A stretch of DNA of 46,690 nucleotides from Clostridiaceae bacterium. GTDB taxonomy: Bacteria > Bacillota > Clostridia > DSM-8532. The position numbers and the translations under genes were made by a program. Shown here in pieces: positions 31,919-46,165 of the stretch. Within the stretch, counting starts at the first letter, position 1; every line of letters starts with the position of its first letter. Location of the stretch: the NCBI GenBank assembly GCA_012519655.1, contig JAAYPS010000097.1:1-46690 (forward strand), given 5' to 3'. The notes under the pieces were generated by a model. That model saw only the letters and a list, made by a program, of their open reading frames with translations. It ran no database searches and was not told where the DNA came from.

Positions 31919-31964
31919 TATACTATAATTCAAAAATATTATTGTAAAGGGGAAGGTGGAAAAT

Positions 31965-33758
31965 ATGGAAAATAAAATCGACAACAAATCTACTGGGACT
32001 TTTTTAGATAATATTCACGATGAAGATTATGAAAGACCATATTTATCAAAGATGGTTACATCATCGGATATGATTTTTGACAACTATAGGGAAAAGGAAA
32101 GTCTGAATGGGTATTGGAATTTCCAAATTGATCAGTATGATACATGTATACGAGCAAAGTGGTATGAAGAAGAATATAAGCTCGAGTCGGGAATGTATCA
32201 ACCAGTTGACTATGATTTTGATAGTTGGGATACCATAAAAGTTCCTTCATGTTGGAACACTCAAAATGAGAGGTTTTATTATTACGAAGGACCAGCAGTT
32301 TATACCAGAACATTCCGCTATGAAAACAGAGGTGAAGAAAGAGTTTTCATTAAATTTGGTGCTGTAAATTATGAAGCTAAAGTATTTCTGAACAAAAAAT
32401 ACATAGGAATGCATAGAGGGGGTTCCACTCCATTTTTCATTGAAGTAACTGGATTGCTTGAAGAAAGCAATCGTATTATTGTAGTAGCAGATAACACCAG
32501 AAAAAAAGAAGCAGTACCGGCAAGAAATACCGACTGGTTTAATTATGGTGGAGTATATAGGGATGTTGAAATATTAAGGCTTCCAGAAACATTTATAAAG
32601 GATTTTCGTATTAGCCTTGTGCCAAACAGCAACTTTAAGAAGATTAGAGTTCAGTTGGAAGTTGATGGTCGCCAATTAAACGAAAAAGCAATAATTGAAA
32701 TACCTAAGTTGAACATAACTAAGGAAATTAATTGTGTGAACGGGAAGGCTGATTTTGAAATTAAAGCCGACCCCGAGTTGTGGAGTCCTGAAAAACCTCG
32801 GTTATATGATGTTAAAGTTAATTACCTATTTGATTCTATTCAAGATAAGGTTGGGTTTAGAGAAATTAAAGCCGATAAAACAGGTATTTATCTTAACGGA
32901 CAAAGGATTTTCCTTAAGGGTGTATGTACTCATGAAGAAAGCGTTCCAAACGGAAAAGCAATTACAGAAGAAGAAATAATGGAAAACTTTAATCTTGCAA
33001 AGCAAATGAATTGCAATTTCATGCGTTTAGCACATTATCCACATACAGAAAAAGCTGCAAGGATAGCTGATAAAGTTGGAATACTTTTATGGGAAGAGGT
33101 TCCTGTATATTGGGCAATAGATTTTAAGAACCATGATACATACAAAAATGCAGAAAACCAGCTAACCGAACTCATTCTACGGGATACTAACAGGGCAAGC
33201 GTTATTATTTGGTCGGTAGGGAATGAAAATGCTGACACCGATGATAGGTTAGAGTTTATGAGTTCATTAGCAAAAAAAGCTAAGGAAATCGATCCTTCCA
33301 GACTTGTATCGGCTGCCTGCCTTGTAGATACTGACAATCTGATGATTAAAGATAGGCTTACTGATTACCTTGATATTATCGGCCTTAATGAATACTACGG
33401 ATGGTATGCTCCTGATTTTAATGATTTAATAAAACTACTTGATAATAGCAATCCTCAAAAACCCGTTATCGTTACTGAATTTGGGGCTGATGCTCTTAAA
33501 GGTGCTCGCGGAACATTCGATGATTTAGGTACTGAGGACTGTCAGCTATATGTTTACAGAAAGCAAACTGAAACACTAGATAAAATACCATATATACAAG
33601 GTACAACACCATGGATTTTATATGATTTTAGATGTCCTCGTAGAACTAATCCACTTCAGTTGGAGTATAACAGAAAAGGCCTTCTATCCGAGGATAAGTC
33701 ATATATAAAGCCGGCTTATTATGTAATGAAAGAATTTTATGCTACAAAAAAATATTAG
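31965..33758 (+). CDS. Glycoside hydrolase family 2, probable beta-glucuronidase
   Basis: About 597 residues with the GH2 order: N-terminal jelly roll (GYWNFQIDQYD, KVPSCWNTQNERFYYYEGPAVY), an Ig-like domain and a TIM barrel. The acid/base glutamate is in IIWSVGNENAD and the nucleophile in VIVTEFGADALKGARG. Near the C-terminus, EYNRKGLL has the N-x-K arrangement that contacts the glucuronate carboxylate in beta-glucuronidases, and the size matches that group, so I favour beta-glucuronidase over beta-galactosidase. No signal peptide, so cytoplasmic. ATG 31965 has GGAAGGTGG upstream; GTG 31956 in the same frame would be too close to AAAGGGG. It is convergent with the AraC-GH43 gene. Confidence 0.85.
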   Translation: MENKIDNKSTGTFLDNIHDEDYERPYLSKMVTSSDMIFDNYREKESLNGYWNFQIDQYDTCIRAKWYEEEYKLESGMYQPVDYDFDSWDTIKVPSCWNTQNERFYYYEGPAVYTRTFRYENRGEERVFIKFGAVNYEAKVFLNKKYIGMHRGGSTPFFIEVTGLLEESNRIIVVADNTRKKEAVPARNTDWFNYGGVYRDVEILRLPETFIKDFRISLVPNSNFKKIRVQLEVDGRQLNEKAIIEIPKLNITKEINCVNGKADFEIKADPELWSPEKPRLYDVKVNYLFDSIQDKVGFREIKADKTGIYLNGQRIFLKGVCTHEESVPNGKAITEEEIMENFNLAKQMNCNFMRLAHYPHTEKAARIADKVGILLWEEVPVYWAIDFKNHDTYKNAENQLTELILRDTNRASVIIWSVGNENADTDDRLEFMSSLAKKAKEIDPSRLVSAACLVDTDNLMIKDRLTDYLDIIGLNEYYGWYAPDFNDLIKLLDNSNPQKPVIVTEFGADALKGARGTFDDLGTEDCQLYVYRKQTETLDKIPYIQGTTPWILYDFRCPRRTNPLQLEYNRKGLLSEDKSYIKPAYYVMKEFYATKKY

Positions 33759-33811: not shown

Positions 33812-36800
33812 TTAGCTAAACCACCAACAATCTAAGTTAAGTAGATTATGTTCACTATCGCCCTTAAAGATAAAGAAAACATTATGAACACCGGTAACTC
33901 GACTTAACTCAGATGAGAATATATCCCAATTATCATAGCTGCCGGTGGAGCCAACGCCTAATACGCATACTATCTTTCCTTGCGAACTATCCAGCCTTAT
34001 TTCTATTTCTCCGCCTGTTATAGAAGATGCCCGTACATGGAATTGAGTAGCTCCTTTTTCTCCAAAATCTACATTTGCCACCGCAATCCAATCGCCGTCG
34101 TGTATATCAGTAACACATAAGTTCGTACAGCCAGGTATAATGGCTGTGTTGACGCCAGCTTGCCAAGCGAAGGTTTCTGCTCCTGTTTGTTTATATGGAT
34201 CGAGCGTAACTGGCAGGGTAACACCATCCATATCAGGTTTTACAGGCTTTATACGTCCGTCAAATGTGATGTCAATCGCGTTGATATGTACAGAGCGATA
34301 ACCATTTACTTTTCTATGTGCCTTACTTAATGTTTGTGTATTATACGCAATATACCAATGTCCTTTGTAAGTGAAAATACAGTGATGGTTGTCACTACCT
34401 ACGCCGAAGATATTCGACGGGTTTTCTAATACTTTTCCCATATATGTAAATGGTCCCGTTGGAGATTCTCCTACCATGTACACAATATCTCCATAAGCTC
34501 GATTTGATATTCTATGTTCTTCCTTGGAGTTGGAGGAATATGAGTAATAATATCTCCCGTTAAATTTATGAATCCACGAGTGCCCTAAAAACGCTGGAAC
34601 ATCGATTGTTACGGGGGTGTCAACTGTACTGATCATATCATCACCAAGGTTAACAACATGAGCTGTGCACGGATACAAGGTAGCTTTCTGAGTTTGAGAG
34701 GGGAGAGCACTACCGAAATAAAGATAGCCAGTTTGGTCGTCATCCAATAATACTGCAGGGGCAAAACATCTAGCAGCATCCCCTTCACTAGATATATGAT
34801 GATAAATCAGTGGAGCACCAAGAGGGTCTGTCCATGGACCGATTGGAGTATCTGCAGTTAATACGCCTATACTCGAATTGCCATTTGAGAAGTATAAGAA
34901 GAATTTGTCTTTACCTTCGAAAGGCTTGCAAACAACGGCAGGGGACCAAGAATTCGACGCCCAGTTTGCCACACCATTTGGACCAGCTACATTTATCTCG
35001 CCATGATCTGTCCAGTTGATCATATCTGTGGATGAAATGACTGCAATTGTATGGATTTCTTTGTAGCTATTCATAACTAATCGTCCATGAGTATTGTATT
35101 GATATCTATCGGCGGTCATATATATATATAGCCGTCCGTCATATTCCAATGCACATGGATCTGCGCCATACTTGTGACTTATCAAGGGATTTGACATACC
35201 CGGAAGTTTTCCTTTTGCATTGGTTTGCACCGCTATTAACCGAATGGCTGTTTTTGCTTTATGTGTTCGATATAGAACCTTACCGCCGTTAACATGGATG
35301 TAGTCGATTGTGATGAACAATTCCGTGTTTTTTTGAATAAACCTATTTACTCTTAATCTGATTACCGCAAACACTTCGGATGAATTATGAGTAAAATTTA
35401 CTTGTTTTCCTGTTACAAATAATTGTAATCGATGATTGCTAAACTCATATGTAGTATCTCCAGTTATATTACTGTTTAAAAATGACACTCCATCCACGTC
35501 TAACTGCTCTGGGATGGTAAAAGAAATACTTATATCGTCATAGAAACCTTCTGGTAAAGGATCCATTCGAATAGGTAAGTCAAAAAATATGTTAGGGATG
35601 CCGGGCTTTTCTATTTGCTCATCAAGTGAAACATTCAGTATTGTAAAATCCACATGTTCAGAAAAGTCATCCGATATACGAAAATAGTCAAAATCTGCAT
35701 ATCCACCTACTATTTGTGTAGCGAAATAAAATAACGCAAAGCGATAGCCGGTAAAATGAGTCAGTTTGTATTGCATATGTAAAACATCACCTATTGGATG
35801 CCAATGGATTTCGTCCTTGCTATAGTAGAAGTGGGCTTGGTCGATTGCATTGGTAAAGTCAAAGTCGATACGTAAATATGCAATATCTCCATTTAAGAGA
35901 ACACTTTCTTTCTCATCAGGTCGACCACTTGATGCGTTTACCATTATGATGTATTTGCTTCCATTTACCATTTTCACACCCACAAACCCATAGATTTCCT
36001 GTAACGCGGCAATACCGGCGAAATCCCCATCTTTCATCCCGCGGGTGTCTATGGCAACCGTGCCAGCACATATTGGACCGAAGGTTCGTTGTGTTAGGGT
36101 ATTACGTGCATCAGTTAATTCGTTGCATAGATATCCGGATTTTAATCTCAGATACCCTGGTCGCTCAGTCAGTGACCATAAGTTGTGATCAGGATTATGG
36201 TTCCATTGCCATACAAGTGACAGTCTGGAATCATTGGGGTCATTTTCAAAGGCAGCTGTCTTAATTTTCCGTATTAAAGGCTTTTCGATCATGGATACGC
36301 TCTCCACGTAAAAATCCATCAGGTCATCACCTTTTTTAGGGTGTGGAACCCAAGGTGTTTCAACGAATATTGCAGTTGATGATAAATCTGAGTCCACAGG
36401 TAGTGTGTATGTACCACGTATGATACCCCATTCGCCTCTTTTCACTACTCCAGAAGCCATATTTCTAATGGTCTCCCAACTTTCACCCCGGAAAATACTG
36501 ATAAGAAATTGCTTCTTAGGTGGTCCTGTCATATACTTTATGCGTGCTGATACCTCATATACTCCTCCCGGAACGAGCTTGCCTGACAAATCTTGTTTCG
36601 GGCCAGCTCCAGTAGCTACCCGATCGGATACAAATAATACAGATTTACCCAGAGATTCATCATAAATCATGTTCAAGCTTGCAATATAGGTGTTCTCCCA
36701 ATGAGCTATCCCATTTTCGAAAGTATTGTTGACCAGTAATTCTTTATCGCACCTGTCACTATTTAGCACTGGAACATCATCTATATGACTGTATAAATAC

Positions 36801-38779
36801 CTTATGTAATTGACGGCTGTAAAATTCTTTGAAATGTTGCTTTGGTAAAATTCATCGGAGCTGACTATTCCTTTAAGATTACCTCTCAAGTGGGGAAGAG
36901 CCATTTGTGTTGGAATGCGATCGATTCTCAGAACAGGCCAATTATCTTCCCATGTCATAGGAATTAAAACAGGGATTCGCCCAACTGCTCCATGATCTTG
37001 AAACAACATAGCATACCAATCACCTGAGGGCGTATCAAAGATTCCACCCTGAGCAACCCCCATATTATTAAAATCCAAATCGTCATCCAATATGACGCGT
37101 CCCTCATACGGCCCTTCAACCCTGTCTGAGCGATAGCATAATTGTATACGTCTTCCAGAGCCTGTAGTAGGCCATGCAATCAAGAATATATAATAATAAC
37201 CATTAATTTTATAGATATGAGCACCTTCAGCAGGAAGGCCATCCTTACCACCCACATCAGTATTTTCAATAATCACGCAGTCGAGACCGTCTTCTTTTAT
37301 GGCTGTTGCGTCGGCGGTTAATTCAATTAAGCGTATGCAACCCGATCCATAAACAAGATAGACGCGTCCATCATCGTCAAATAGAAGACTTTGATCATGA
37401 TATACCTGATCTAACTCATACCGTCGCCATCGACCGTTCTCAATATTTTCAGTCTGGAATATATACGTCTTATCAGTGTTATAAGATGCAACTGTAACAT
37501 AATATGTTCCTTTATGAAAACGAAGGCTTGCAGCCCATGTGCCCTTTCCATACGCATGAGATTGGTTACGCAAAGTGTTGGTATCGCTGTCGTCTAATAT
37601 GTCACATACGTAATTTGCGATTTCCCAGTTTACAAGATCAATTGATTTCATAATAGGGCAGTGAGGTGCAAAATACATGGTGGTACTAACCATATAGTAT
37701 GTATCGTTTACACGGATTACATCTGGGTCGGGTATATCGGTCCAGATATAAAGAGTGTTAAATTTATTATTTCTGTTTATCTGTGTTGAGTCTGATATGT
37801 TATATGTTAATGGACTTGAAGTGATATATGGGGGTATTTTCATTATATTATAATCTTCAAAATCCATATCATAACCGATCTTTGTATTCTTAACTAAACT
37901 ATTTTCTGGTCGTGGCTCATTAATTTTATAAAGATTGCAGAATTCTGTGGGGGTACAATTTGAATATTTCTTAAAGACTCGATTGAAAGTAACGATACTT
38001 TGAAAACCTGACTCAAGGGCAATCTCAGTTATTGGTTTAGTAGAATATATTAGTAAATCCTCTGCTTTTTTAATACGAACCTTATTCAAATATTCAGAAA
38101 AAGAAAGTCCTGAGTTTTTCTTAAACCATCTGGTGAAATGATATTTACTGAACCCTGCTGCATCTGCTATCATGTCCAATGTGATATTATCTTTATAATG
38201 TGTATTTATGTAATTTATGCAATCATTCAGTTTTGCAGCGTTATCCCGGCGCATACTCAGTGTTGAATAAACACCTGACTGGTCATTGCTCTGTTCTCGT
38301 GACAGATGTACTGATATCTCAAAGAGTTTACAGAGGATATTAACTTCGTAATACGGTTGTTTGTAAAGGTACTCATCAAGCATATATAGAAGTCTTTTTT
38401 GAATGTAGGCATGCAATCCTTTTGCAGATTCAGGTGTGATTAATGCATGCCTTGTGTAAACAATGGAAGCGTTCAACAGTCCTTGTATAGCGTTTAATAT
38501 CTGTATGTCAAATATTAAAATGATACGTTTACCATCTTCATGATCGGATTTTAACTCATGTAACTGACCATGTGGAATAATGAAAATGTCGTTTTCGTTT
38601 AAGTGGTATGCATCTGTGCTTATATCCACAGTTAATGACCCTTTGATGGGCATGATTATTTCAACTGCATTATGCCAATGAGTCTGGTAATGGATTTCTC
38701 CAAAATTGTGAAACAGGATAAATTGATTGTCAGACTCATAGGACAGGATTTCCATTATTTCATCTGGCTTTCTGTCCAT
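33812..38779 (-). CDS. AraC-type regulator fused to two GH43 domains and carbohydrate-binding modules
   Basis: A single 1655-residue frame. Residues 1-95: AraC cupin (HWHNAVEI at 34-41). 186-286: two-helix AraC HTH (NITLDMIADAAGFSKYHFTR; PITEIALESGFQS). About 345-640: GH43 with likely base D351 (IPDPDV), modulator D462 (HDQS) and acid E518 (AEGAH). About 680-835: CBM4/9-like. About 845-1040: beta-xylosidase-type lectin domain. About 1041-1185: an unassigned beta domain. About 1197-1520: a second GH43 of the arabinoxylan hydrolase type (SNPLISHKYGADP, D1207) in which the usual Asp and Glu are A1340 and G1399. About 1535-1655: CBM6-like. No signal peptide or membrane helix. It has its own GGAGGT ribosome site and probably its own promoter, and follows the ABC permeases. 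Likely a cytoplasmic sensor-enzyme controlling this xylan-type locus. Domain calls are strong; the regulatory model is inference. Confidence 0.88.
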   Translation of the reverse strand: MDRKPDEIMEILSYESDNQFILFHNFGEIHYQTHWHNAVEIIMPIKGSLTVDISTDAYHLNENDIFIIPHGQLHELKSDHEDGKRIILIFDIQILNAIQGLLNASIVYTRHALITPESAKGLHAYIQKRLLYMLDEYLYKQPYYEVNILCKLFEISVHLSREQSNDQSGVYSTLSMRRDNAAKLNDCINYINTHYKDNITLDMIADAAGFSKYHFTRWFKKNSGLSFSEYLNKVRIKKAEDLLIYSTKPITEIALESGFQSIVTFNRVFKKYSNCTPTEFCNLYKINEPRPENSLVKNTKIGYDMDFEDYNIMKIPPYITSSPLTYNISDSTQINRNNKFNTLYIWTDIPDPDVIRVNDTYYMVSTTMYFAPHCPIMKSIDLVNWEIANYVCDILDDSDTNTLRNQSHAYGKGTWAASLRFHKGTYYVTVASYNTDKTYIFQTENIENGRWRRYELDQVYHDQSLLFDDDGRVYLVYGSGCIRLIELTADATAIKEDGLDCVIIENTDVGGKDGLPAEGAHIYKINGYYYIFLIAWPTTGSGRRIQLCYRSDRVEGPYEGRVILDDDLDFNNMGVAQGGIFDTPSGDWYAMLFQDHGAVGRIPVLIPMTWEDNWPVLRIDRIPTQMALPHLRGNLKGIVSSDEFYQSNISKNFTAVNYIRYLYSHIDDVPVLNSDRCDKELLVNNTFENGIAHWENTYIASLNMIYDESLGKSVLFVSDRVATGAGPKQDLSGKLVPGGVYEVSARIKYMTGPPKKQFLISIFRGESWETIRNMASGVVKRGEWGIIRGTYTLPVDSDLSSTAIFVETPWVPHPKKGDDLMDFYVESVSMIEKPLIRKIKTAAFENDPNDSRLSLVWQWNHNPDHNLWSLTERPGYLRLKSGYLCNELTDARNTLTQRTFGPICAGTVAIDTRGMKDGDFAGIAALQEIYGFVGVKMVNGSKYIIMVNASSGRPDEKESVLLNGDIAYLRIDFDFTNAIDQAHFYYSKDEIHWHPIGDVLHMQYKLTHFTGYRFALFYFATQIVGGYADFDYFRISDDFSEHVDFTILNVSLDEQIEKPGIPNIFFDLPIRMDPLPEGFYDDISISFTIPEQLDVDGVSFLNSNITGDTTYEFSNHRLQLFVTGKQVNFTHNSSEVFAVIRLRVNRFIQKNTELFITIDYIHVNGGKVLYRTHKAKTAIRLIAVQTNAKGKLPGMSNPLISHKYGADPCALEYDGRLYIYMTADRYQYNTHGRLVMNSYKEIHTIAVISSTDMINWTDHGEINVAGPNGVANWASNSWSPAVVCKPFEGKDKFFLYFSNGNSSIGVLTADTPIGPWTDPLGAPLIYHHISSEGDAARCFAPAVLLDDDQTGYLYFGSALPSQTQKATLYPCTAHVVNLGDDMISTVDTPVTIDVPAFLGHSWIHKFNGRYYYSYSSNSKEEHRISNRAYGDIVYMVGESPTGPFTYMGKVLENPSNIFGVGSDNHHCIFTYKGHWYIAYNTQTLSKAHRKVNGYRSVHINAIDITFDGRIKPVKPDMDGVTLPVTLDPYKQTGAETFAWQAGVNTAIIPGCTNLCVTDIHDGDWIAVANVDFGEKGATQFHVRASSITGGEIEIRLDSSQGKIVCVLGVGSTGSYDNWDIFSSELSRVTGVHNVFFIFKGDSEHNLLNLDCWWFS

Positions 38780-38905: not shown

Positions 38906-39790
38906 CTACTCTTTAACGCTACCGATATTAACAGTTACAAAATACTTTTGAAGGAATGGATATACCACGAGGATAGGTACTGTCGCTACCATAGTCATAG
39001 CCGCACGCAATGAGTTCGGGGTAACCGTGCTACGAGAAGTATGAGATTCAGCTAAATAATCTGGTTGTTTGACCCCAGACTGCATTGATGAGGATAATAT
39101 CTTCATCATTTCATATTGAAGGGTACTCAATTCCTGTTTTGGCGCAAATATAAAAGAGTCAAACCATGAGTTCCATGAGCCAACTGCCACCCATAATGCA
39201 ACAGTAGCTAGAACTGGCATACATAACGGAAAAATAATGTTGAAATATATTTTTAGCTCGGAGGCACCGTCAATTTTCGCAGATTCCACAAGAGATGCTG
39301 GTAGTGAATTTATGTATGTACGTATGACAACTACGTTGAAAGCGCCAACCAATCCGGGTAGTACATAGACCCAAAAGTTATTAATCAGACCCAAGTTGCG
39401 GTACAAGAAATACTGCGGAATTAACCCTGCATTTATGTACATAGTCATTATCATAAATGTGGTCAGAAACTTTCGGAAAATGAATTCCTTTCGGCTCAAT
39501 ACATATGCGAATAAACCTGAGATAAACACGCCTACTATTGTTGTTATCAATGTTCGAGCCACTGACACTATGAAAGCTTTAAATATTTTGTCAGTTTTAA
39601 ATACGCTTTGATAGTTAAATAGTGTCCACTTTCTCGGCCATAAGTAAAGAGAGCCTTTCATAGAATCCCTAGCTTCATTAAAAGAAGTAATCAACGTGTT
39701 CCAAAGTGGATACACCATGATAATGACAATTATAGCCATAAAGAACACAATAATACCGTCAATAATCTTATCACCAAATGATTTTCTCAT
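38906..39790 (-). CDS. Sugar ABC transporter permease (LplC/YtcP type)
   Basis: The 294-residue membrane protein has six hydrophobic segments and the EAA loop ESAKIDGASELKIYFNIIFP (about residues 189-208) that contacts the ATPase. It belongs to the second permease class of CUT1 oligosaccharide importers. The start follows GGAGGT. It lies 37 bp after the partner permease. No ATPase gene is present here, so it probably shares an MsmK-type ATPase encoded elsewhere, as is common for these clostridial importers. Confidence 0.92.
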   Translation of the reverse strand: MRKSFGDKIIDGIIVFFMAIIVIIMVYPLWNTLITSFNEARDSMKGSLYLWPRKWTLFNYQSVFKTDKIFKAFIVSVARTLITTIVGVFISGLFAYVLSRKEFIFRKFLTTFMIMTMYINAGLIPQYFLYRNLGLINNFWVYVLPGLVGAFNVVVIRTYINSLPASLVESAKIDGASELKIYFNIIFPLCMPVLATVALWVAVGSWNSWFDSFIFAPKQELSTLQYEMMKILSSSMQSGVKQPDYLAESHTSRSTVTPNSLRAAMTMVATVPILVVYPFLQKYFVTVNIGSVKE

Positions 39791-39827: not shown

Positions 39828-40769
39828 TTAAATTAATTTTTCCTCGCCCACCCAATCGGCGATTTTATTGCATAGTGTTAATACTATGACGCTGACCACC
39901 GTTTTGAACATACCGGCTGCGGTTCCGAAAGCAAAACCACCAGATCTCCCAAAACCTCTTTTAAGTACAAAAATATCAATAGTTTCCGAAACATCAAGTA
40001 CGAGACCATTTGAACCTAAGATATACTGAACTTCAAAGCCTGCGTTGAGAATCCATCCTGCGTTTAAGATAAGAAGGATGATGATTGTAGATTTGATACC
40101 TGGTAAAGTAATATGCCACATTCTACCGAAACGGCCGTACCCATCTATAGCCGCAGCTTCGTACAAGGCTGGATCGATAGAAGTGATTGCTGCCAAGTAG
40201 ATGATGCTATTCCAACCCATAGACTTCCATACATTTGTAAAACCAACAATCCACCAGAAATAACTCGCCTCTCCCAAAAAATGTATTTTATTTTTTACGA
40301 GTCCAGTCGCAAGTAACAATTCATTTATAATCCCGCCGTCCATGGATAGAGCATTTGAAACCAAACCGCAAACAATAATCCAAGAAAGGAAATGGGGCAT
40401 ATAAGATATTGTTTGCACTACCCGCTTGAATTTAAAGAATGGCCCCGTGAGTTCGTTTAGAAACAGCGCAAATGCGATGGCTGTAACAAAACTAAGCACA
40501 AGGTTGATTATACTCATTCCCAAGGTGTTTCGCATAACACGGTAAAAGTCAGGGTCTGTAAATAGGTTTCTAAAATGAGTAAACCCTATCCATTCTTGTT
40601 CAAAAAAGGATAATTGTGGTTTGTAATTCTGGAATGCCATGGTAAGTCCCCATAGTGGTAAATATGAAAAAATAAGAAAATAAACAAAATAGGGCACTGA
40701 AATTAAGATCAGTGCTTTTTGTTTACGAACTTCATCAAGAAAATTTCCTTTAGCACTTTTGTTAAACAT
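39828..40769 (-). CDS. Sugar ABC transporter permease (LplB type)
   Basis: About 313 residues with the pattern FSYLPLWGLTMAFQNYKP near the N-terminus and the EAA motif AAAIDGYGRFGRMWHITLPG. It is the first permease of a CUT1-type importer. The start at 40769 is chosen because AAGGGG lies 8 nt upstream; a longer frame from 40796 would include the ribosome site. Together with the other permease and the upstream binding lipoprotein it forms one importer, probably for hemicellulose oligosaccharides given the adjacent GH43 fusion. Confidence 0.92.
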   Translation of the reverse strand: MFNKSAKGNFLDEVRKQKALILISVPYFVYFLIFSYLPLWGLTMAFQNYKPQLSFFEQEWIGFTHFRNLFTDPDFYRVMRNTLGMSIINLVLSFVTAIAFALFLNELTGPFFKFKRVVQTISYMPHFLSWIIVCGLVSNALSMDGGIINELLLATGLVKNKIHFLGEASYFWWIVGFTNVWKSMGWNSIIYLAAITSIDPALYEAAAIDGYGRFGRMWHITLPGIKSTIIILLILNAGWILNAGFEVQYILGSNGLVLDVSETIDIFVLKRGFGRSGGFAFGTAAGMFKTVVSVIVLTLCNKIADWVGEEKLI

Positions 40770-40817
40770 ATAGATATCCCCTTCTTTGCTTTTCAATAAG
40801 GTTCAATGTACTATACA

Positions 40818-40871: not shown

Positions 40872-42596
40872 TTATTCATATAAACTCATCTGAATTTGTC
40901 TTTCTATTTCTGCTTCCAGAGCAGGGTAGTCAACGCTCTCGTATCTTTGTGCGTATTCAGCCCAAGCAGCTTCAAAATCAGTAGACATGATTACATCGGG
41001 CAGATACCTATTTTGAAGATCTGTTATTTGGTCAAAAATTGGTTTAGCAATATTGTCGTCTTCCATTGTGGAGAAAATTGACCAAACTTCAGGATAGCCA
41101 GGATGATCCATTAGAGGAAGGAAGTCGGACTTGGTGTAATAACCATATTTTTGATAGAATTCTTTGTCATAATCGAATTGATTCTCAAGTCTTTCTTCAG
41201 GCTGTGTTCCTGCTCCAGTGGAGTTACCGTTGGAGTAACGACCTTCTAATTTCGGGAACTGGTCTCCGATGACCAATCCTGCGTTAGCTAGACGCCAGTC
41301 TGGATTGTCGAAATTGGCTTTCTGCTCTGGAGTACGTCTGTAGCGACCATTAGCGTCAACATAGTAGTCTTCGCCTTCGATACCCCAGTACATCAAGCGA
41401 TGTACGTCCTCTTCAAGAAGTGTATCCATAAACTGTAAAGCACGCTCGACATCTTTACACTCAATGCTGATGCCCATGCCATTACCGCCTATGATCCCTT
41501 CATTTCTTACTCTGTTGTAAGGAACTGGGGTGCCGTCATAACTGATTCCTAGAGGGACATAAGTTCTATTAATTTTGCCCTCGGATATCAATACAAATTC
41601 ACCATCCTGGAAGTTCCATTGCTGGTCGAACATAGCTAATACACGACCGTTAGAAATAACGTTCAAGTATTGGTCATAGTTTCTAGTAAATGTCTCAGGG
41701 TTGATCAAGCCTTTTTTGTATACTTCGTTAAGCTTTTTGTAATAATCCTTAGCATACCATTTGTTTTGATAGATTTCTACTTCTAAGGTGTCTGGGTCAA
41801 CTACTACATCGCCTTCGTTACGTCCACCAATCAGATGCTGTGGAGCATTTTTCAGGCAGAATGAGCGCCAGTCTTGTGAATGTACTTCGAAAGGCAGAGT
41901 GGGCTGACCATCGATGGTTGGATGTGCTTCGTAATAACGTTCTAGCAAGTCAAAGAATTCATCTAATGTCTTTGGATAAGTATATCCGTCCCAAGCAAGT
42001 ACATCTTTCTGAATCCAGAAAGCAGGACCGTTGTAATCTGCCTCATAAAAATCGTCTTCTCCGTCATTAAGCCAATACTGACGGCTCCAAATGTCAAGTA
42101 TGTAAACTTTTCCATCATTTGATACACTGCGAAGTCTATCCATATAATCCCCATAATGCTTCCAAAGATTTGGATAATTAGGAAGATAGTCGTCAAGTGC
42201 AGCAAACGAGCCAGCATTTAAAAATCTTCCGCGTGCTTGTCCGGCACCAATTAAATCGGGATAGTCGCCACTGGCGATCATGATTCCAACTTTTTGTTCC
42301 ATGTCACCAACAAGAAATTCATAGTCAATGGTGACGCCTGTGATTTCTTTAATCTTTTGGACAATTTTGTTATCGGCTGGAGGAGCCTCACCTGGGCCTG
42401 CGACAAACATGGTAAATGTTATGGGTTCAAGCTTATCACCATCTGTCCCAGGTGCAGGAGTATCGCCGTCTTTTGGTTTAGCTGCGGTTGTTGGGGCTGG
42501 AGTGTCTGGTGAAGTGACAACTGGCCCACATGCAGAAAAAACCGTAATGATCATGACAGCAACTAACAACATAGTAAGAATTCTTTTACTTTTCAT
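40872..42596 (-). CDS. Extracellular sugar-binding lipoprotein of an ABC transporter
   Basis: About 574 residues. A lipoprotein signal MKSKRILTMLLVAVMIITVF ends in the lipobox FSAC with C23, followed by a Pro/Thr-rich linker (TSPDTPAPTTAAKPK). The body is a family-1-type solute-binding protein of the large LplA class. The start 42596 has AAAGGGG 8 nt upstream; the longer frame from 42647 adds residues before the signal peptide and is unlikely. It heads the leftward importer operon. The ligand is unknown, but the GH43 fusion in the same operon suggests xylo- or arabinoxylo-oligosaccharides. Confidence 0.93.
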   Translation of the reverse strand: MKSKRILTMLLVAVMIITVFSACGPVVTSPDTPAPTTAAKPKDGDTPAPGTDGDKLEPITFTMFVAGPGEAPPADNKIVQKIKEITGVTIDYEFLVGDMEQKVGIMIASGDYPDLIGAGQARGRFLNAGSFAALDDYLPNYPNLWKHYGDYMDRLRSVSNDGKVYILDIWSRQYWLNDGEDDFYEADYNGPAFWIQKDVLAWDGYTYPKTLDEFFDLLERYYEAHPTIDGQPTLPFEVHSQDWRSFCLKNAPQHLIGGRNEGDVVVDPDTLEVEIYQNKWYAKDYYKKLNEVYKKGLINPETFTRNYDQYLNVISNGRVLAMFDQQWNFQDGEFVLISEGKINRTYVPLGISYDGTPVPYNRVRNEGIIGGNGMGISIECKDVERALQFMDTLLEEDVHRLMYWGIEGEDYYVDANGRYRRTPEQKANFDNPDWRLANAGLVIGDQFPKLEGRYSNGNSTGAGTQPEERLENQFDYDKEFYQKYGYYTKSDFLPLMDHPGYPEVWSIFSTMEDDNIAKPIFDQITDLQNRYLPDVIMSTDFEAAWAEYAQRYESVDYPALEAEIERQIQMSLYE

Positions 42597-42807
42597 TAAT
42601 GGATCCCCTTTCTTTGATTTGTTGATTTTAGACAAATAACAATGCATTTATCTAATACTAACTATACATGTTGCCTAATTTGGTATGCTAATCAAATATT
42701 GCGATGTTCTTACCATAAATTGCTATTGTTTATTTTATAAATTGTCATGTGATGAAACTTTTGTCTTATGTCTGGTAGGCAGAACACAGTAGAACACATT
42801 AGTTAAC

Positions 42808-42891
42808 AGATGTTTACATAGTACAATACTGATGTTACAACATATCTATGAGCCTACAAACATTATTTATATGCTAATAGATGTTTACATA
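42808..42891. promoter_or_regulatory. Two direct repeats AGATGTTTACATA, candidate operator
   Basis: The identical 13-mer occurs at 42808-42820 and 42879-42891, 71 bp apart. The similarity extends to about 21 bp (A-C/T-AGATGTTTACATA followed by ACAA). The second copy overlaps a 7-bp dyad, GCTAATA (42873-42879) / TATTAGC (42902-42908). Widely spaced direct repeats are typical of AraC-family sites, and the neighbouring operon encodes an AraC-type protein. Confidence 0.5.
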
Positions 42892-43033
42892 TAACAAATA
42901 ATATTAGCAAAGAAAATAATGTTTAATTATTGTGCAATTAGCTGTTATAGTAAGATATAAAATCATATTATTGTACATCGAGACATGATCAAAAATCGAT
43001 CAGAGAAAAGTTTTTTAATGTGTATAAATTATA

Positions 43034-43062
43034 TTGACATACTTTGCGAATGAACATATAAT
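43034..43062 (+). promoter_or_regulatory. Consensus sigma-A promoter of the TRAP operon
   Basis: TTGACA (43034-43039), exactly 17 bp, TATAAT (43057-43062): a perfect match to the housekeeping consensus. It starts a leader of about 208 nt before dctP. Confidence 0.85.
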
Positions 43063-43276: not shown

Positions 43277-44341
43277 GTGGGTAAAATTGGAAATTTATCA
43301 CGAACAGTACTAATCAGAGGACTCTTAGTAGTAGCATTATTATTTGCACTAGCTATTCAATCATCATGTATGAGCTCGGTACATGCTCAAAAGGAAGGAC
43401 CCATTAAACTAAAACTTGCAAGCTTCTTTCCAGGGACTCACCCTGCTGAAACAGAGTTGGTTCAGGGATGGGCAGAAGCTATTGAGAAAGCAACTGATGG
43501 AAGGGTAATTATTACAAGTTACCCTGGTGAAACACTTCTTAAGGCTGCGGATATCTACAATGGCGTTGTGGATGGCGTTGCAGATATAGGGCTATCATCT
43601 TTCTCTTACAATTCAGGTCGTTTTCCAGAAATTGAGGCTTTCGAGCAACCTGGTATAGTCTATAAAAACTCAAAGTCTGCAAGTAAAACTGCTTGGGAAG
43701 GTATACAGGAGCTTGATCCTGAATGTGTGCAAGATACTAAATTACTTATGGTAATAGCTACTGGCCCTGGAGATCTATTCACACGAAAACCAGTAAATAA
43801 ACTTGAAGATTTAGTAGGAATGCAAATCAGAGCTACTGGCCTTACAGCTGATACACTTGCATTGACAGGTGCAGTTCCTGTTGGGATGCCGCAATCGGAT
43901 GCATACGAATCATTGTCAAAGGGTATTGTAAACGGAAATCTTGCGCCTATTGAGGTATTAAAGACATGGAAACATGCCGAAGTGACAAAACATCTTACCA
44001 GAACTCCATTCCTATACAATAATTTGTTTTATATAACTATGAACATTGATAAATGGAATGCTATGCCCGAAGATATTAAGAACATAATCACTGAGGTTTC
44101 TTTAGAATATCAAGAAAAGGTAGGAATAGGGCTTTGGGATAGACAAAACCAGGCTGCACTTAAATGGGCAATAGAAGAAGAAGGAATCGAAATAGTAGAA
44201 CTTTCTGAAGAAGAAACACAAAGGTGGATTCAAAAAGTTATGCCAATGCAAGAAAAATATATTGAGAAAAATGGTGAAGCTGGTATAAGAGCGCTTGAAA
44301 CAGCAATGAGGCTTGCTGAAAAATACAATGATGAATATTAA
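43277..44341 (+). CDS. dctP: TRAP transporter solute-binding protein (DctP family)
   Basis: The 354-residue secreted protein has a signal peptide (basic start, then LLVVALLFALAIQSSC). It could be cut either as a lipoprotein at IQSSC or after VHA-Q, seven residues later. The mature part starts with IKLKLASFFPGTHPAETELV, and the carboxylate-binding arginine is in LVGMQIRATGLTAD, as in DctP proteins for C4-dicarboxylates, sialic acid and uronates. The start is GTG 43277 after TATGGAGGT. It is the first gene of dctPQM. A uronate ligand would fit the nearby GH2 glucuronidase, but the sequence does not prove it. Confidence 0.93.
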   Translation: MGKIGNLSRTVLIRGLLVVALLFALAIQSSCMSSVHAQKEGPIKLKLASFFPGTHPAETELVQGWAEAIEKATDGRVIITSYPGETLLKAADIYNGVVDGVADIGLSSFSYNSGRFPEIEAFEQPGIVYKNSKSASKTAWEGIQELDPECVQDTKLLMVIATGPGDLFTRKPVNKLEDLVGMQIRATGLTADTLALTGAVPVGMPQSDAYESLSKGIVNGNLAPIEVLKTWKHAEVTKHLTRTPFLYNNLFYITMNIDKWNAMPEDIKNIITEVSLEYQEKVGIGLWDRQNQAALKWAIEEEGIEIVELSEEETQRWIQKVMPMQEKYIEKNGEAGIRALETAMRLAEKYNDEY

Positions 44342-44381
44342 TCTCAACATATAATGAAAACATTTTAGGGAGGAATAATGA

Positions 44382-44861
44382 GTGAAAAAGTTTGAGAGCA
44401 TTGTAGAAAAAACAAGCCAAGTTTTGAATACTATTGCTGGATATGGAATTGTTGTGACTATGGTATTAATAGTTCTTAACGTTATTTTAAGATCTTTATT
44501 TAATATTCCCATTAAAGGCGTTTATGAAATATCAGGATATTTAACAGCTATTGTTGTGGCTTTTACCCTTGCGCAATGTGCTTTAGAAGGTGCGCATATA
44601 GCAGTTGAAATTCTTATGGATAAGTTAAATTCAAAAATACAATTGGTTATAAATACAATTTGGAGTTCAATTATGATAGTTTTTCTATTCTTCATAGGTA
44701 TACAAGTTTTCTCTAATGGAATCACTGTAATGAAAAGTGGTGAAGTTTCACCAACTGCACAAATTCCATTTTATCCCTTTATCTTTTTGGTATCGATAGG
44801 TTTCTTTGTCTTATGCTTTGCAGAGATACATAAAACTGTTAAGGGGGTAAGAGTAAAATGA
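44382..44861 (+). CDS. dctQ: TRAP transporter small permease (DctQ)
   Basis: The 159-residue protein has four membrane helices and the family pattern NVILRSLFNIPIKGVYEISGY near residues 29-48, plus a VAFTLAQCALEGAHIAVEIL segment. Start is GTG 44382 following GGGAGG; an ATG four bases earlier is out of frame and soon stops. It overlaps dctM by four bases (ATGA), so the two membrane subunits are translationally coupled. Confidence 0.92.
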   Translation: MKKFESIVEKTSQVLNTIAGYGIVVTMVLIVLNVILRSLFNIPIKGVYEISGYLTAIVVAFTLAQCALEGAHIAVEILMDKLNSKIQLVINTIWSSIMIVFLFFIGIQVFSNGITVMKSGEVSPTAQIPFYPFIFLVSIGFFVLCFAEIHKTVKGVRVK

Positions 44862-46165
44862 CACCAGAAGTTATAGGTCTTATTGGAATAATTCTAATGT
44901 TACTACTTATAATGTTAAAAATCCCCATTGCTTATTCTATGTTTATAGTTGGTTTTATCGGATTTGCAATAATTGTTAGTCCAGATGCAGCACTTTCGAT
45001 GGTTGGAACCGAAATATTTTCAAATTTCTCATCATATACACTAAGTGTAATACCTATGTTTGTATGGATGGGGTTTATAGCATATTATTCTGGAGTTGGA
45101 ACTAATCTTTATGCTCTTGCAAACAGGTTTTTGGGCAGGTTACCTGGTGGTCTTGCTATGGCAACTCAAGCAGCATGCGCGATATTTGGCGCAATCTGCG
45201 GTTCAAATACAGCCACAGCTGCCACAATAGGAGCAATTGCAATTCCCGAAATGAAAAAATATGGTTATGATGATTCCTTATCAACTGCAAGTGTTGCTGC
45301 TGGGGGAGCTTTAGGAATACTAATACCACCAAGTGTTATTTTCATACTCTATGGCGCAGCAACCGAGCAATCCATAGGGAAACTATTTATTGCTGGGATA
45401 GTTCCAGGAATATTGTTAATGTTGTTATATATGTTAACAATCTACATACTCGTAATTAAAAACCCATCCCTTGCACCCGTTGCAGATAAAGATGCAATGG
45501 CAGAGGAGGGTACAATATTTAAAAGTGGATTAGTCGAAATATTTTTTACATTCTTTGTATCTTTAGGCGGTCTTTTTGCTGGATATTTTACACCAACTGA
45601 AGCTGGTGCAGTCGGTGCCGGAAGTATACTTTTAATAACATTTTTAAGAAAAAAATTAACTTGGGATGGTTTTAAGAAGTCTCTACTGGATACGACAAGA
45701 ACAACAGGAATGATTATGCTTCTTGTTGCCGGCGCTATGGTTTTTGGGCGTTTTATAGCTGTAAGCAGATTGCCCTTTGAAATGGCTAATTGGGCGTCAA
45801 GCCTTGCATTACCACCATTCATAATACTAGCATTAATACTGGTTATATATGCCATACTTGGCTGTTTCATTGACGCACTTGCATTGATATTGCTCACCGT
45901 ACCAATTTTTTATCCAGTAGTAGTAAATATATTAGGTTATAATCCTATTTGGTTTGGAGTTATTATTGTTCTGGTTGTAGCAGCAGGGGTTATTACACCA
46001 CCTGTTGGAATGAATGTATTTATTATAAAAGGTGTGGCAAAGGATGTACCCCTTGAAAAAATATTCAAAGGAATCTGGCCATTTCTCTTTGCTTTGGTAA
46101 TATGTATAGTTATATTGCTCATATTTCCACAGCTAACTACATTCCTACCCGACTTATTAGGATAA
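44858..46165 (+). CDS. dctM: TRAP transporter large permease (DctM)
   Basis: The 435-residue membrane protein shows the DctM patterns IPMFVWMGFIAYYSG, AICGSNTATAATIGAIAIPE and GGALGILIPPSVIFILYG, and the C-terminal GVITPPVGMNVFIIKGVAKD. It forms the sodium-driven channel subunit that takes up the solute delivered by DctP. Twelve or so membrane helices are expected. Its stop codon is the first part of a short palindromic repeat element. Confidence 0.95.
   Translation: MTPEVIGLIGIILMLLLIMLKIPIAYSMFIVGFIGFAIIVSPDAALSMVGTEIFSNFSSYTLSVIPMFVWMGFIAYYSGVGTNLYALANRFLGRLPGGLAMATQAACAIFGAICGSNTATAATIGAIAIPEMKKYGYDDSLSTASVAAGGALGILIPPSVIFILYGAATEQSIGKLFIAGIVPGILLMLLYMLTIYILVIKNPSLAPVADKDAMAEEGTIFKSGLVEIFFTFFVSLGGLFAGYFTPTEAGAVGAGSILLITFLRKKLTWDGFKKSLLDTTRTTGMIMLLVAGAMVFGRFIAVSRLPFEMANWASSLALPPFIILALILVIYAILGCFIDALALILLTVPIFYPVVVNILGYNPIWFGVIIVLVVAAGVITPPVGMNVFIIKGVAKDVPLEKIFKGIWPFLFALVICIVILLIFPQLTTFLPDLLG

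What the first reader, a model, noticed from the sequence alone, without database searches (positions are those of the whole stretch)
33812..38779. A 1655-residue AraC regulator fused to two GH43 domains and CBMs
Seen: one uninterrupted frame joins a complete AraC regulator (cupin plus HTH, to about residue 286) through a linker of about 55 residues to GH43, CBM4/9-like, lectin-like, second GH43 and CBM6-like modules. No signal peptide, no internal ribosome site at the junction. Known: AraC regulators normally sense small sugars, and GH43s are usually separate enzymes. Inference: the protein may be a one-component sensor in which substrate binding or turnover by the GH43/CBM part controls DNA binding, coupling the regulator directly to the oligosaccharides brought in by the transporter encoded in the same operon.
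Basis: partly seen in the sequence, partly recalled or inferred. Interest (0 to 1): 0.88.

Follow-up and report, generated by a model that had tools for sequence, protein, structure and literature searches.

The report
AraC regulator fused to disarmed enzyme
A bacterium has joined a DNA-binding sugar-response regulator to a large plant-fibre-degrading enzyme that is normally secreted, and one of the enzyme's two cutting sites has lost its key residues, so the enzyme has probably become the part of a gene switch that senses imported plant-sugar fragments.

Summary
Window 33812-38779 (-) is one 1655-codon frame with a ribosome-binding site at its start: AraC cupin + HTH, linker, GH43, CBM4/9, GH43_C2, a cohesin-like domain, a second GH43 and CBM6. 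A MAG of a different family (L013) encodes the same architecture at 55% identity, so it is not a chimaera. From GH43 onward it is a known secreted enzyme architecture; the regulator stands where secreted relatives carry a signal peptide or anchor.

L013 lost different ones, with a 123-residue deletion. All 28 unfused relatives keep all three. The first GH43 keeps its triad here.

The neighbouring oligosaccharide ABC transporter is 75-84% identical in congeners and a same-family genome, where it has strong promoters and LacI-like boxes. Here these are gone, replaced by two 23-nt direct repeats found nowhere else in the genome.

Best reading: a one-component arabinoxylo-oligosaccharide sensor built from a partly disarmed enzyme, activating the transporter operon. 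The regulatory mechanism is inferred. AraC-GH39 fusions are known, so this is a new variant of a known kind.

The parts
33812..38779 (-). AraC-GH43-CBM4/9-GH43_C2-cohesin-like-GH43-CBM6 fusion gene, 1655 aa
38786..38790 (-). Shine-Dalgarno GGAGG, 7 nt before the start codon
38285..38779 (-). AraC cupin (ligand-binding) domain, residues 1-165
   Evidence: Pfam PF02311; 40% identical to L013
37922..38254 (-). double helix-turn-helix DNA-binding domain, residues 176-286
   Evidence: Pfam HTH_18/HTH_AraC; 55% identical to L013
37748..37921 (-). linker, residues 287-344; no internal ribosome-binding site
   Evidence: 22% identity to L013
36860..37747 (-). first GH43 domain, residues 345-640, catalytic D351, D462, E518 all present
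36353..36742 (-). CBM4/9 carbohydrate-binding module, residues 680-809
35675..36235 (-). GH43_C2 concanavalin A-like domain, residues 849-1035
35234..35644 (-). all-beta, cohesin-like domain, residues about 1046-1182 (tentative)
   Evidence: 4dh2 cohesin matched by the L013 model
34220..35197 (-). second GH43 domain, residues 1195-1520, fold kept, two of three catalytic residues lost
34760..34762 (-). codon 1340: Ala in place of the pKa-modulating Asp (D163 of Bacillus subtilis XynD)
34583..34585 (-). codon 1399: Gly in place of the general acid Glu (E225 of B. subtilis XynD)
33815..34180 (-). CBM6 carbohydrate-binding module, residues 1534-1655
38906..39790 (-). ABC sugar permease (MalG type)
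39828..40796 (-). ABC sugar permease (MalF/UgpA type)
40872..42647 (-). extracellular oligosaccharide-binding protein (SBP) of the ABC transporter
   Evidence: 75-84% identical in G001-G003 and G012
42804..42826 (-). direct repeat copy 1 TTGTACTATGTAAACATCTGTTA, candidate regulator site
42875..42897 (-). direct repeat copy 2 TTGTTATATGTAAACATCTATTA, candidate regulator site
31956..33758 (+). GH2 (beta-glucuronidase/galactosidase-like), convergent neighbour; membership in the system uncertain

Best explanation
The gene encodes a cytoplasmic one-component transcription regulator in which a whole arabinoxylan-degrading enzyme of secreted type serves as the sensing part. The AraC double HTH binds two direct repeats upstream of the neighbouring ABC-transporter operon. 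Imported arabinoxylo-oligosaccharides are bound by the CBMs, the disarmed second GH43 propeller and possibly the first GH43; this changes the state of the AraC part and activates the transporter operon. The second GH43 holds sugar without cutting it; the first GH43, whose triad is intact, may slowly clear the signal. SHOWN: the continuous frame, the architecture, an orthologue, the lost catalytic residues, and the transporter's changed control region with unique repeats. INFERRED: cytoplasmic location, ligand identity, that this regulator binds those repeats, and the coupling of sugar binding to DNA binding.
For: (1) Same architecture in two MAGs of different families, sisters in the tree of the C-terminal half (support 99/96). 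(2) Second GH43: Asp and Glu lost here; in L013 base Asp to Glu and a 123-aa deletion over the catalytic blades; 28 of 28 unfused relatives keep D/D/E. The lesions differ, so catalysis was released in both lineages. (3) Other pocket residues (two His, two Trp, Arg) are kept here, and the model fits B. subtilis XynD over 465 residues at 1.7 A (Z 53.3). A GH43 with the same Glu-to-Gly change was crystallised with xylobiose bound (2exk, listed). (4) The AraC part stands where relatives have a signal peptide or anchor. (5) The adjacent transporter is orthologous to that of congeners, where it stands beside GH43, and in one case GH51 and GH39, genes, and to that of L007, where it adjoins a GH43-GH43 gene of the same kind. 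(6) Congeners and G012 have LacI-like AAAACGTTTT boxes and 10-12/12 promoters upstream; the window has neither, but has two 23-nt direct repeats, unique in 2.6 Mb; no shuffle of 200 gave so good a repeat.
Against: No experiment links the protein to the repeats or to any sugar. The first GH43 has an intact triad, so the protein may simply be an enzyme with a regulator attached. L013's genome has no orthologue of this transporter's SBP, so the target is not conserved. The L013 deletion removes much of the second propeller, which fits decay of a useless domain as well as reuse. The repeats lie 157-250 bp before the SBP start, rather far for a directly activating AraC site unless the leader is long. 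The two fused proteins form one clade, so the link between fusion and loss rests on one lineage with two separate outcomes.
Confidence: 0.55

Rival explanations
1. A two-function protein: an active cytoplasmic arabinofuranosidase/xylosidase (first GH43) joined to an AraC regulator that senses a monosaccharide through its own cupin. The fusion gives fixed stoichiometry; the enzyme part does not signal, and the second GH43 is decaying.
For: First GH43 triad D351/D462/E518 intact. An AraC cupin is present. The second GH43 has 14 of 94 near-invariant positions changed, against 0-1 in the unfused relatives of its clade.
Against: In L013 the first GH43 also lost an active-site Asp (D462 to His), the only one among about 110 domains. 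The cupin is the least conserved AraC domain between the two fused proteins (40%) while GH43a and C2 are the most conserved domains (69-70%).
Confidence: 0.25
2. A trigger enzyme: turnover by the first GH43, not binding, sets DNA binding, for example by clearing the inducer or by a product passed to the cupin.
For: First GH43 triad intact here.
Against: L013 has lost the pKa-modulating Asp of that domain, although a GH43-like xylanase with Asn at this place is active (PMC11022575), so L013 may still turn over.
Confidence: 0.12
3. Two proteins in practice: an internal start or cleavage in the linker yields a separate regulator and enzyme.
For: The linker is poorly conserved (22%).
Against: No Shine-Dalgarno sequence before the internal ATGs at codons 305 and 313; one frame kept in two lineages.
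Confidence: 0.05
4. Assembly chimaera or sequencing artefact joining two genes.
For: The host genome is a draft in 198 contigs.
Against: L013, an independent MAG of another family, has the same joined frame with divergent sequence.
Confidence: 0.02

Closest known systems
AraC-GH39 fusion proteins (beta-xylosidase-like; staphylococcal AryK-type regulators)
   Same: N-terminal AraC (cupin + double HTH) joined to a glycoside-hydrolase domain in one chain. PMC8543862 states that an AraC-like domain is found N-terminal in some GH39 xylosidases. An example in an 834-codon frame was met here in the same class (L183).
   Different: The window protein carries two GH43 propellers, further binding modules and a disarmed second propeller; GH43 (propeller) is unrelated in fold to GH39 (barrel; own knowledge). 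The NCBIfam AryK model matched only over the AraC part (107 bits, cut-off 850).
Secreted GH43-CBM4/9-GH43_C2-(cohesin-like)-GH43-CBM6 xylanolytic enzymes of Paenibacillus and other Bacillota
   Same: Same domain order from the first GH43 to CBM6, about 40-56% identical in best segments.
   Different: They have a signal peptide or membrane anchor instead of AraC and keep both catalytic triads.
Bacillus subtilis XynD (PDB 3c7e/3c7g), arabinoxylan arabinofuranohydrolase, GH43-CBM6
   Same: Fold and sequence of residues 1185-1655 (49% identity over 465 residues).
   Different: XynD keeps D24/D163/E225; here D163 is Ala and E225 is Gly.
Xua arabinoxylo-oligosaccharide uptake system of Ruminiclostridium cellulolyticum (PMC9675976)
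   Same: ABC importer with cytoplasmic GH43/GH51/GH39 enzymes and an AraC-family regulator.
   Different: There the AraC protein is the response regulator of a two-component system; here sensor and regulator would be one chain.

Membership tests
AraC/XylS regulators | Two-HTH DNA-binding domain | tested here: met
   HTH_18 77.9 bits, HTH_AraC two stretches
AraC/XylS regulators | N-terminal cupin ligand-binding domain | tested here: met
   AraC_binding 28.2 bits against cut-off 21.1
AraC/XylS regulators | Binds direct-repeat DNA sites and controls transcription on ligand | not testable with these tools
   Candidate repeats found, binding not tested
GH43 (first domain) | GH43 sequence with Asp base, Asp modulator, Glu acid | tested here: met
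   GH43 201 bits for the whole protein; D351, D462, E518; hydrolysis not tested
GH43 (second domain) | Sequence and five-bladed fold of the family | tested here: met
   82 bits; Z 53.3 to 3c7e
GH43 (second domain), as an active enzyme | Asp base and Glu acid both present | tested here: not met
   Base D1207 kept, acid Glu replaced by Gly1399, modulator Asp replaced by Ala1340
AraC-glycoside hydrolase fusions | AraC regulator N-terminal to a GH domain in one chain without signal peptide | tested here: met
AraC-GH39 / AryK | GH39 domain and curated AryK score of 850 bits | tested here: not met
   No GH39 match; 107 bits

The most novel reading that the evidence does not exclude
A complete multi-module polysaccharide-degrading enzyme of secreted type was captured by an AraC regulator in place of its signal peptide, had its second catalytic site disarmed, and became a cytoplasmic oligosaccharide receptor that took over a transporter operon formerly under LacI-type control: an enzyme-to-sensor conversion caught with its intermediate states (one site disarmed here; in L013 one site destroyed and the other probably impaired).
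Probability: 0.4. Interest if true: 0.8.

Novelty: new variant of a known kind. Interest (0 to 1): 0.62.

Why it matters
If right, it shows how bacteria can build a sensor for a complex oligosaccharide by re-using the enzyme that recognises it, rather than evolving a small-molecule pocket. It gives a natural series (secreted active relatives, half-disarmed window protein, further disarmed L013 protein) for testing enzyme-to-receptor evolution. It would also offer a one-protein switch responsive to arabinoxylan fragments, and a reason not to annotate such genes simply as enzymes.

Tried and rejected
Assembly chimaera: rejected because of L013. Further AraC-GH43-GH43 fusions: none other among the 80 loci kept from the genome-contig scan (scanned), 61 relatives, 38 and 198 family members of L013 and L007 (scanned), about 390 genomes in each of two class samples, 398 phylum genomes or plasmids; these searches are partial and can miss divergent cases. 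L007, the nearest relative after L013, is cut by its contig end before the position of an AraC part, so whether it is fused is open; its catalytic residues are intact where visible. Conserved DNA site in L013: the 23-nt motif was not found there (best 8 mismatches). I first took the D462-to-His change in L013 as proof that its first GH43 is dead; PMC11022575 reports an active GH43-like enzyme with Asn at that place, so this is only an indication. Literature on AraC-GH43 fusions: nothing found in six searches of the open library, which lacks most subscription papers.

Full report
OBSERVATION. The frame 33812-38779 (-) is open for 1655 codons. It starts at an ATG with GGAGG seven bases upstream. 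Pfam finds AraC_binding, HTH_18/HTH_AraC, GH43, CBM4_9, GH43_C2 and CBM6, with a second GH43 stretch. Between GH43_C2 and the second GH43 lies an all-beta domain (residues about 1046-1182) that Pfam does not name; the L013 model of this region matches a type I cohesin (4dh2, TM 0.63 on the target), which I take as tentative. The in-frame ATGs in the junction have no ribosome-binding site.

IT IS REAL. L013, a Defluviitaleaceae MAG, encodes the same order of domains in one frame. Identity by domain: cupin 40%, HTH 55%, linker 22%, first GH43 69%, CBM4_9 55%, C2 70%, cohesin-like 41%, second GH43 57% (with a 123-residue deletion in L013), CBM6 50%. In a maximum-likelihood tree of the C-terminal half the two fused proteins are sisters (99/96), with L007 next (100/99).

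WHERE THE ENZYME PART COMES FROM. GH43-CBM4/9-C2-GH43-CBM6 is a standing architecture of secreted or anchored proteins in Paenibacillus, Paenactinomyces, Clostridia and others. In these the first GH43 follows shortly on a signal peptide or membrane anchor. In the fused proteins the AraC regulator takes that place; the window protein has no hydrophobic segment there (Kyte-Doolittle maximum 0.76 in the first 60 residues). The protein should therefore stay in the cytoplasm (inference).

THE SECOND GH43 IS DISARMED. Aligned to B. subtilis XynD (3c7e), the base D24 is kept, D163 is Ala1340 and the general acid E225 is Gly1399. In an alignment of 30 second-GH43 domains every one of the 28 others keeps Asp, Asp and Glu. 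L013 has Glu for the base and has lost the stretch that carries the acid. Fourteen of 94 near-invariant positions are changed in the window protein, 0-1 in the unfused relatives of its clade. Pocket residues His1465, His1466, Trp1273, Trp1278 and Arg1495 are kept. The predicted structure (pLDDT 90) overlays XynD over 465 residues at 1.7 A, Z 53.3. The library lists a G. stearothermophilus GH43 with the same Glu-to-Gly change crystallised with xylobiose (2exk); so such a change leaves sugar binding possible. GH43 catalysis needs two carboxylates, base and acid (PMC7809346), so hydrolysis by this domain is unlikely. The first GH43 keeps D351, D462 and E518; in L013 D462 is His, the only such case in about 110 domains. 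That change alone need not kill an enzyme (PMC11022575).

THE NEIGHBOURHOOD. Upstream on the same strand lie the SBP and two permeases of a sugar ABC transporter. The SBP is 75-84% identical in three congeners and in G012 of the same family, none of which shows the fusion gene next to it (G003's contig ends there). In the congeners the divergent neighbour is a GH43, with GH51 and GH39 genes in G002 and a LacI regulator in G001. This suggests arabinoxylan-derived oligosaccharides as cargo (inference). In L007 an orthologous transporter (SBP 55%) stands next to a GH43-GH43 gene of the same kind, in another gene order; this second pairing supports a functional link.

CHANGED CONTROL REGION. Upstream of the SBP, the congeners have AAAACGTTTT boxes (one mismatch in G012) and promoters matching 10-12 of 12 consensus positions; the window has no box better than two mismatches and no promoter above 9 of 12 on that strand. 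Instead it has two 23-nt direct repeats, 71 bp apart, three mismatches between them; none of 200 shuffles did as well. With up to three mismatches the motif occurs only there in the whole genome and not upstream of the four orthologous operons or in L007. The LacI orthologue (71%) and the divergent GH43 orthologue are still in the genome, on another contig. So the transporter has left its LacI-type context and now lies beside the AraC fusion. That the fusion binds the repeats is inferred.

MECHANISM AND RIVALS. I favour an oligosaccharide-binding sensor that activates the transporter. The main rival is an active enzyme fused to an independent AraC regulator, with the second GH43 decaying. Trigger-enzyme action by the first GH43 is possible. 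Tests that separate them are listed under next steps.

COMPARISON. AraC-GH39 fusions are known (PMC8543862), and I met an AraC-GH39 (L183) and an AraC fused to a mannosylglycerate-hydrolase-like domain (L182) in the same class. AraC-GH fusion is thus a recurrent kind. What is new here is the kind of enzyme (a whole multi-module, two-GH43 protein of secreted type), the residue losses confined to the fused proteins, and the altered target operon. I found no paper on such a protein in the open library.

LIMITS. Only two fused sequences are known here; both are from draft assemblies. The organism could not be named. Nothing was tested at the bench.

Noticed in passing
L182:515-3961 (-): AraC regulator fused to a mannosylglycerate-hydrolase-like (six-hairpin) glycoside hydrolase domain, 1149-aa frame, in a genome of the same class: another AraC-GH fusion of a different GH type.
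   Followed up: partly
L183:1332-3833 (+): AraC fused to GH39, 834-aa frame, related to the AryK model (195 bits, below its cut-off).
   Followed up: partly
L205, L206, L207, L208 upstream of the SBP genes: AAAACGTTTT palindromes with strong consensus promoters upstream of the orthologous transporter in congeners and G012, near a LacI gene in G001: a likely LacI-type arabinoxylan regulon of this genus.
   Followed up: partly
window 43034-43062 (+): A perfect 12/12 sigma-70 promoter (TTGACA-17-TATAAT) ahead of the divergent TRAP transporter genes 43277-46165.
   Followed up: no
L189:5515-8135 and L190:4273-6902: Among the closest stand-alone AraC relatives of the fusion's regulator part, two lie next to a GH43-CBM6 gene related to the second GH43 (convergent), so this AraC group and this enzyme are also neighbours elsewhere.
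   Followed up: partly
L013:6124-8998: In L013 the fusion gene directly follows an HlyD/FtsX-type gene cluster and precedes GH95 and GH10 genes; no orthologue of the window's transporter SBP was found in that genome.
   Followed up: partly
window 37661-37663 (residue 373 of the fusion protein): A near-invariant Gly of GH43a is His in both AraC-fused proteins (H in only one other of about 110 domains, L060); a possible shared derived change.
   Followed up: no
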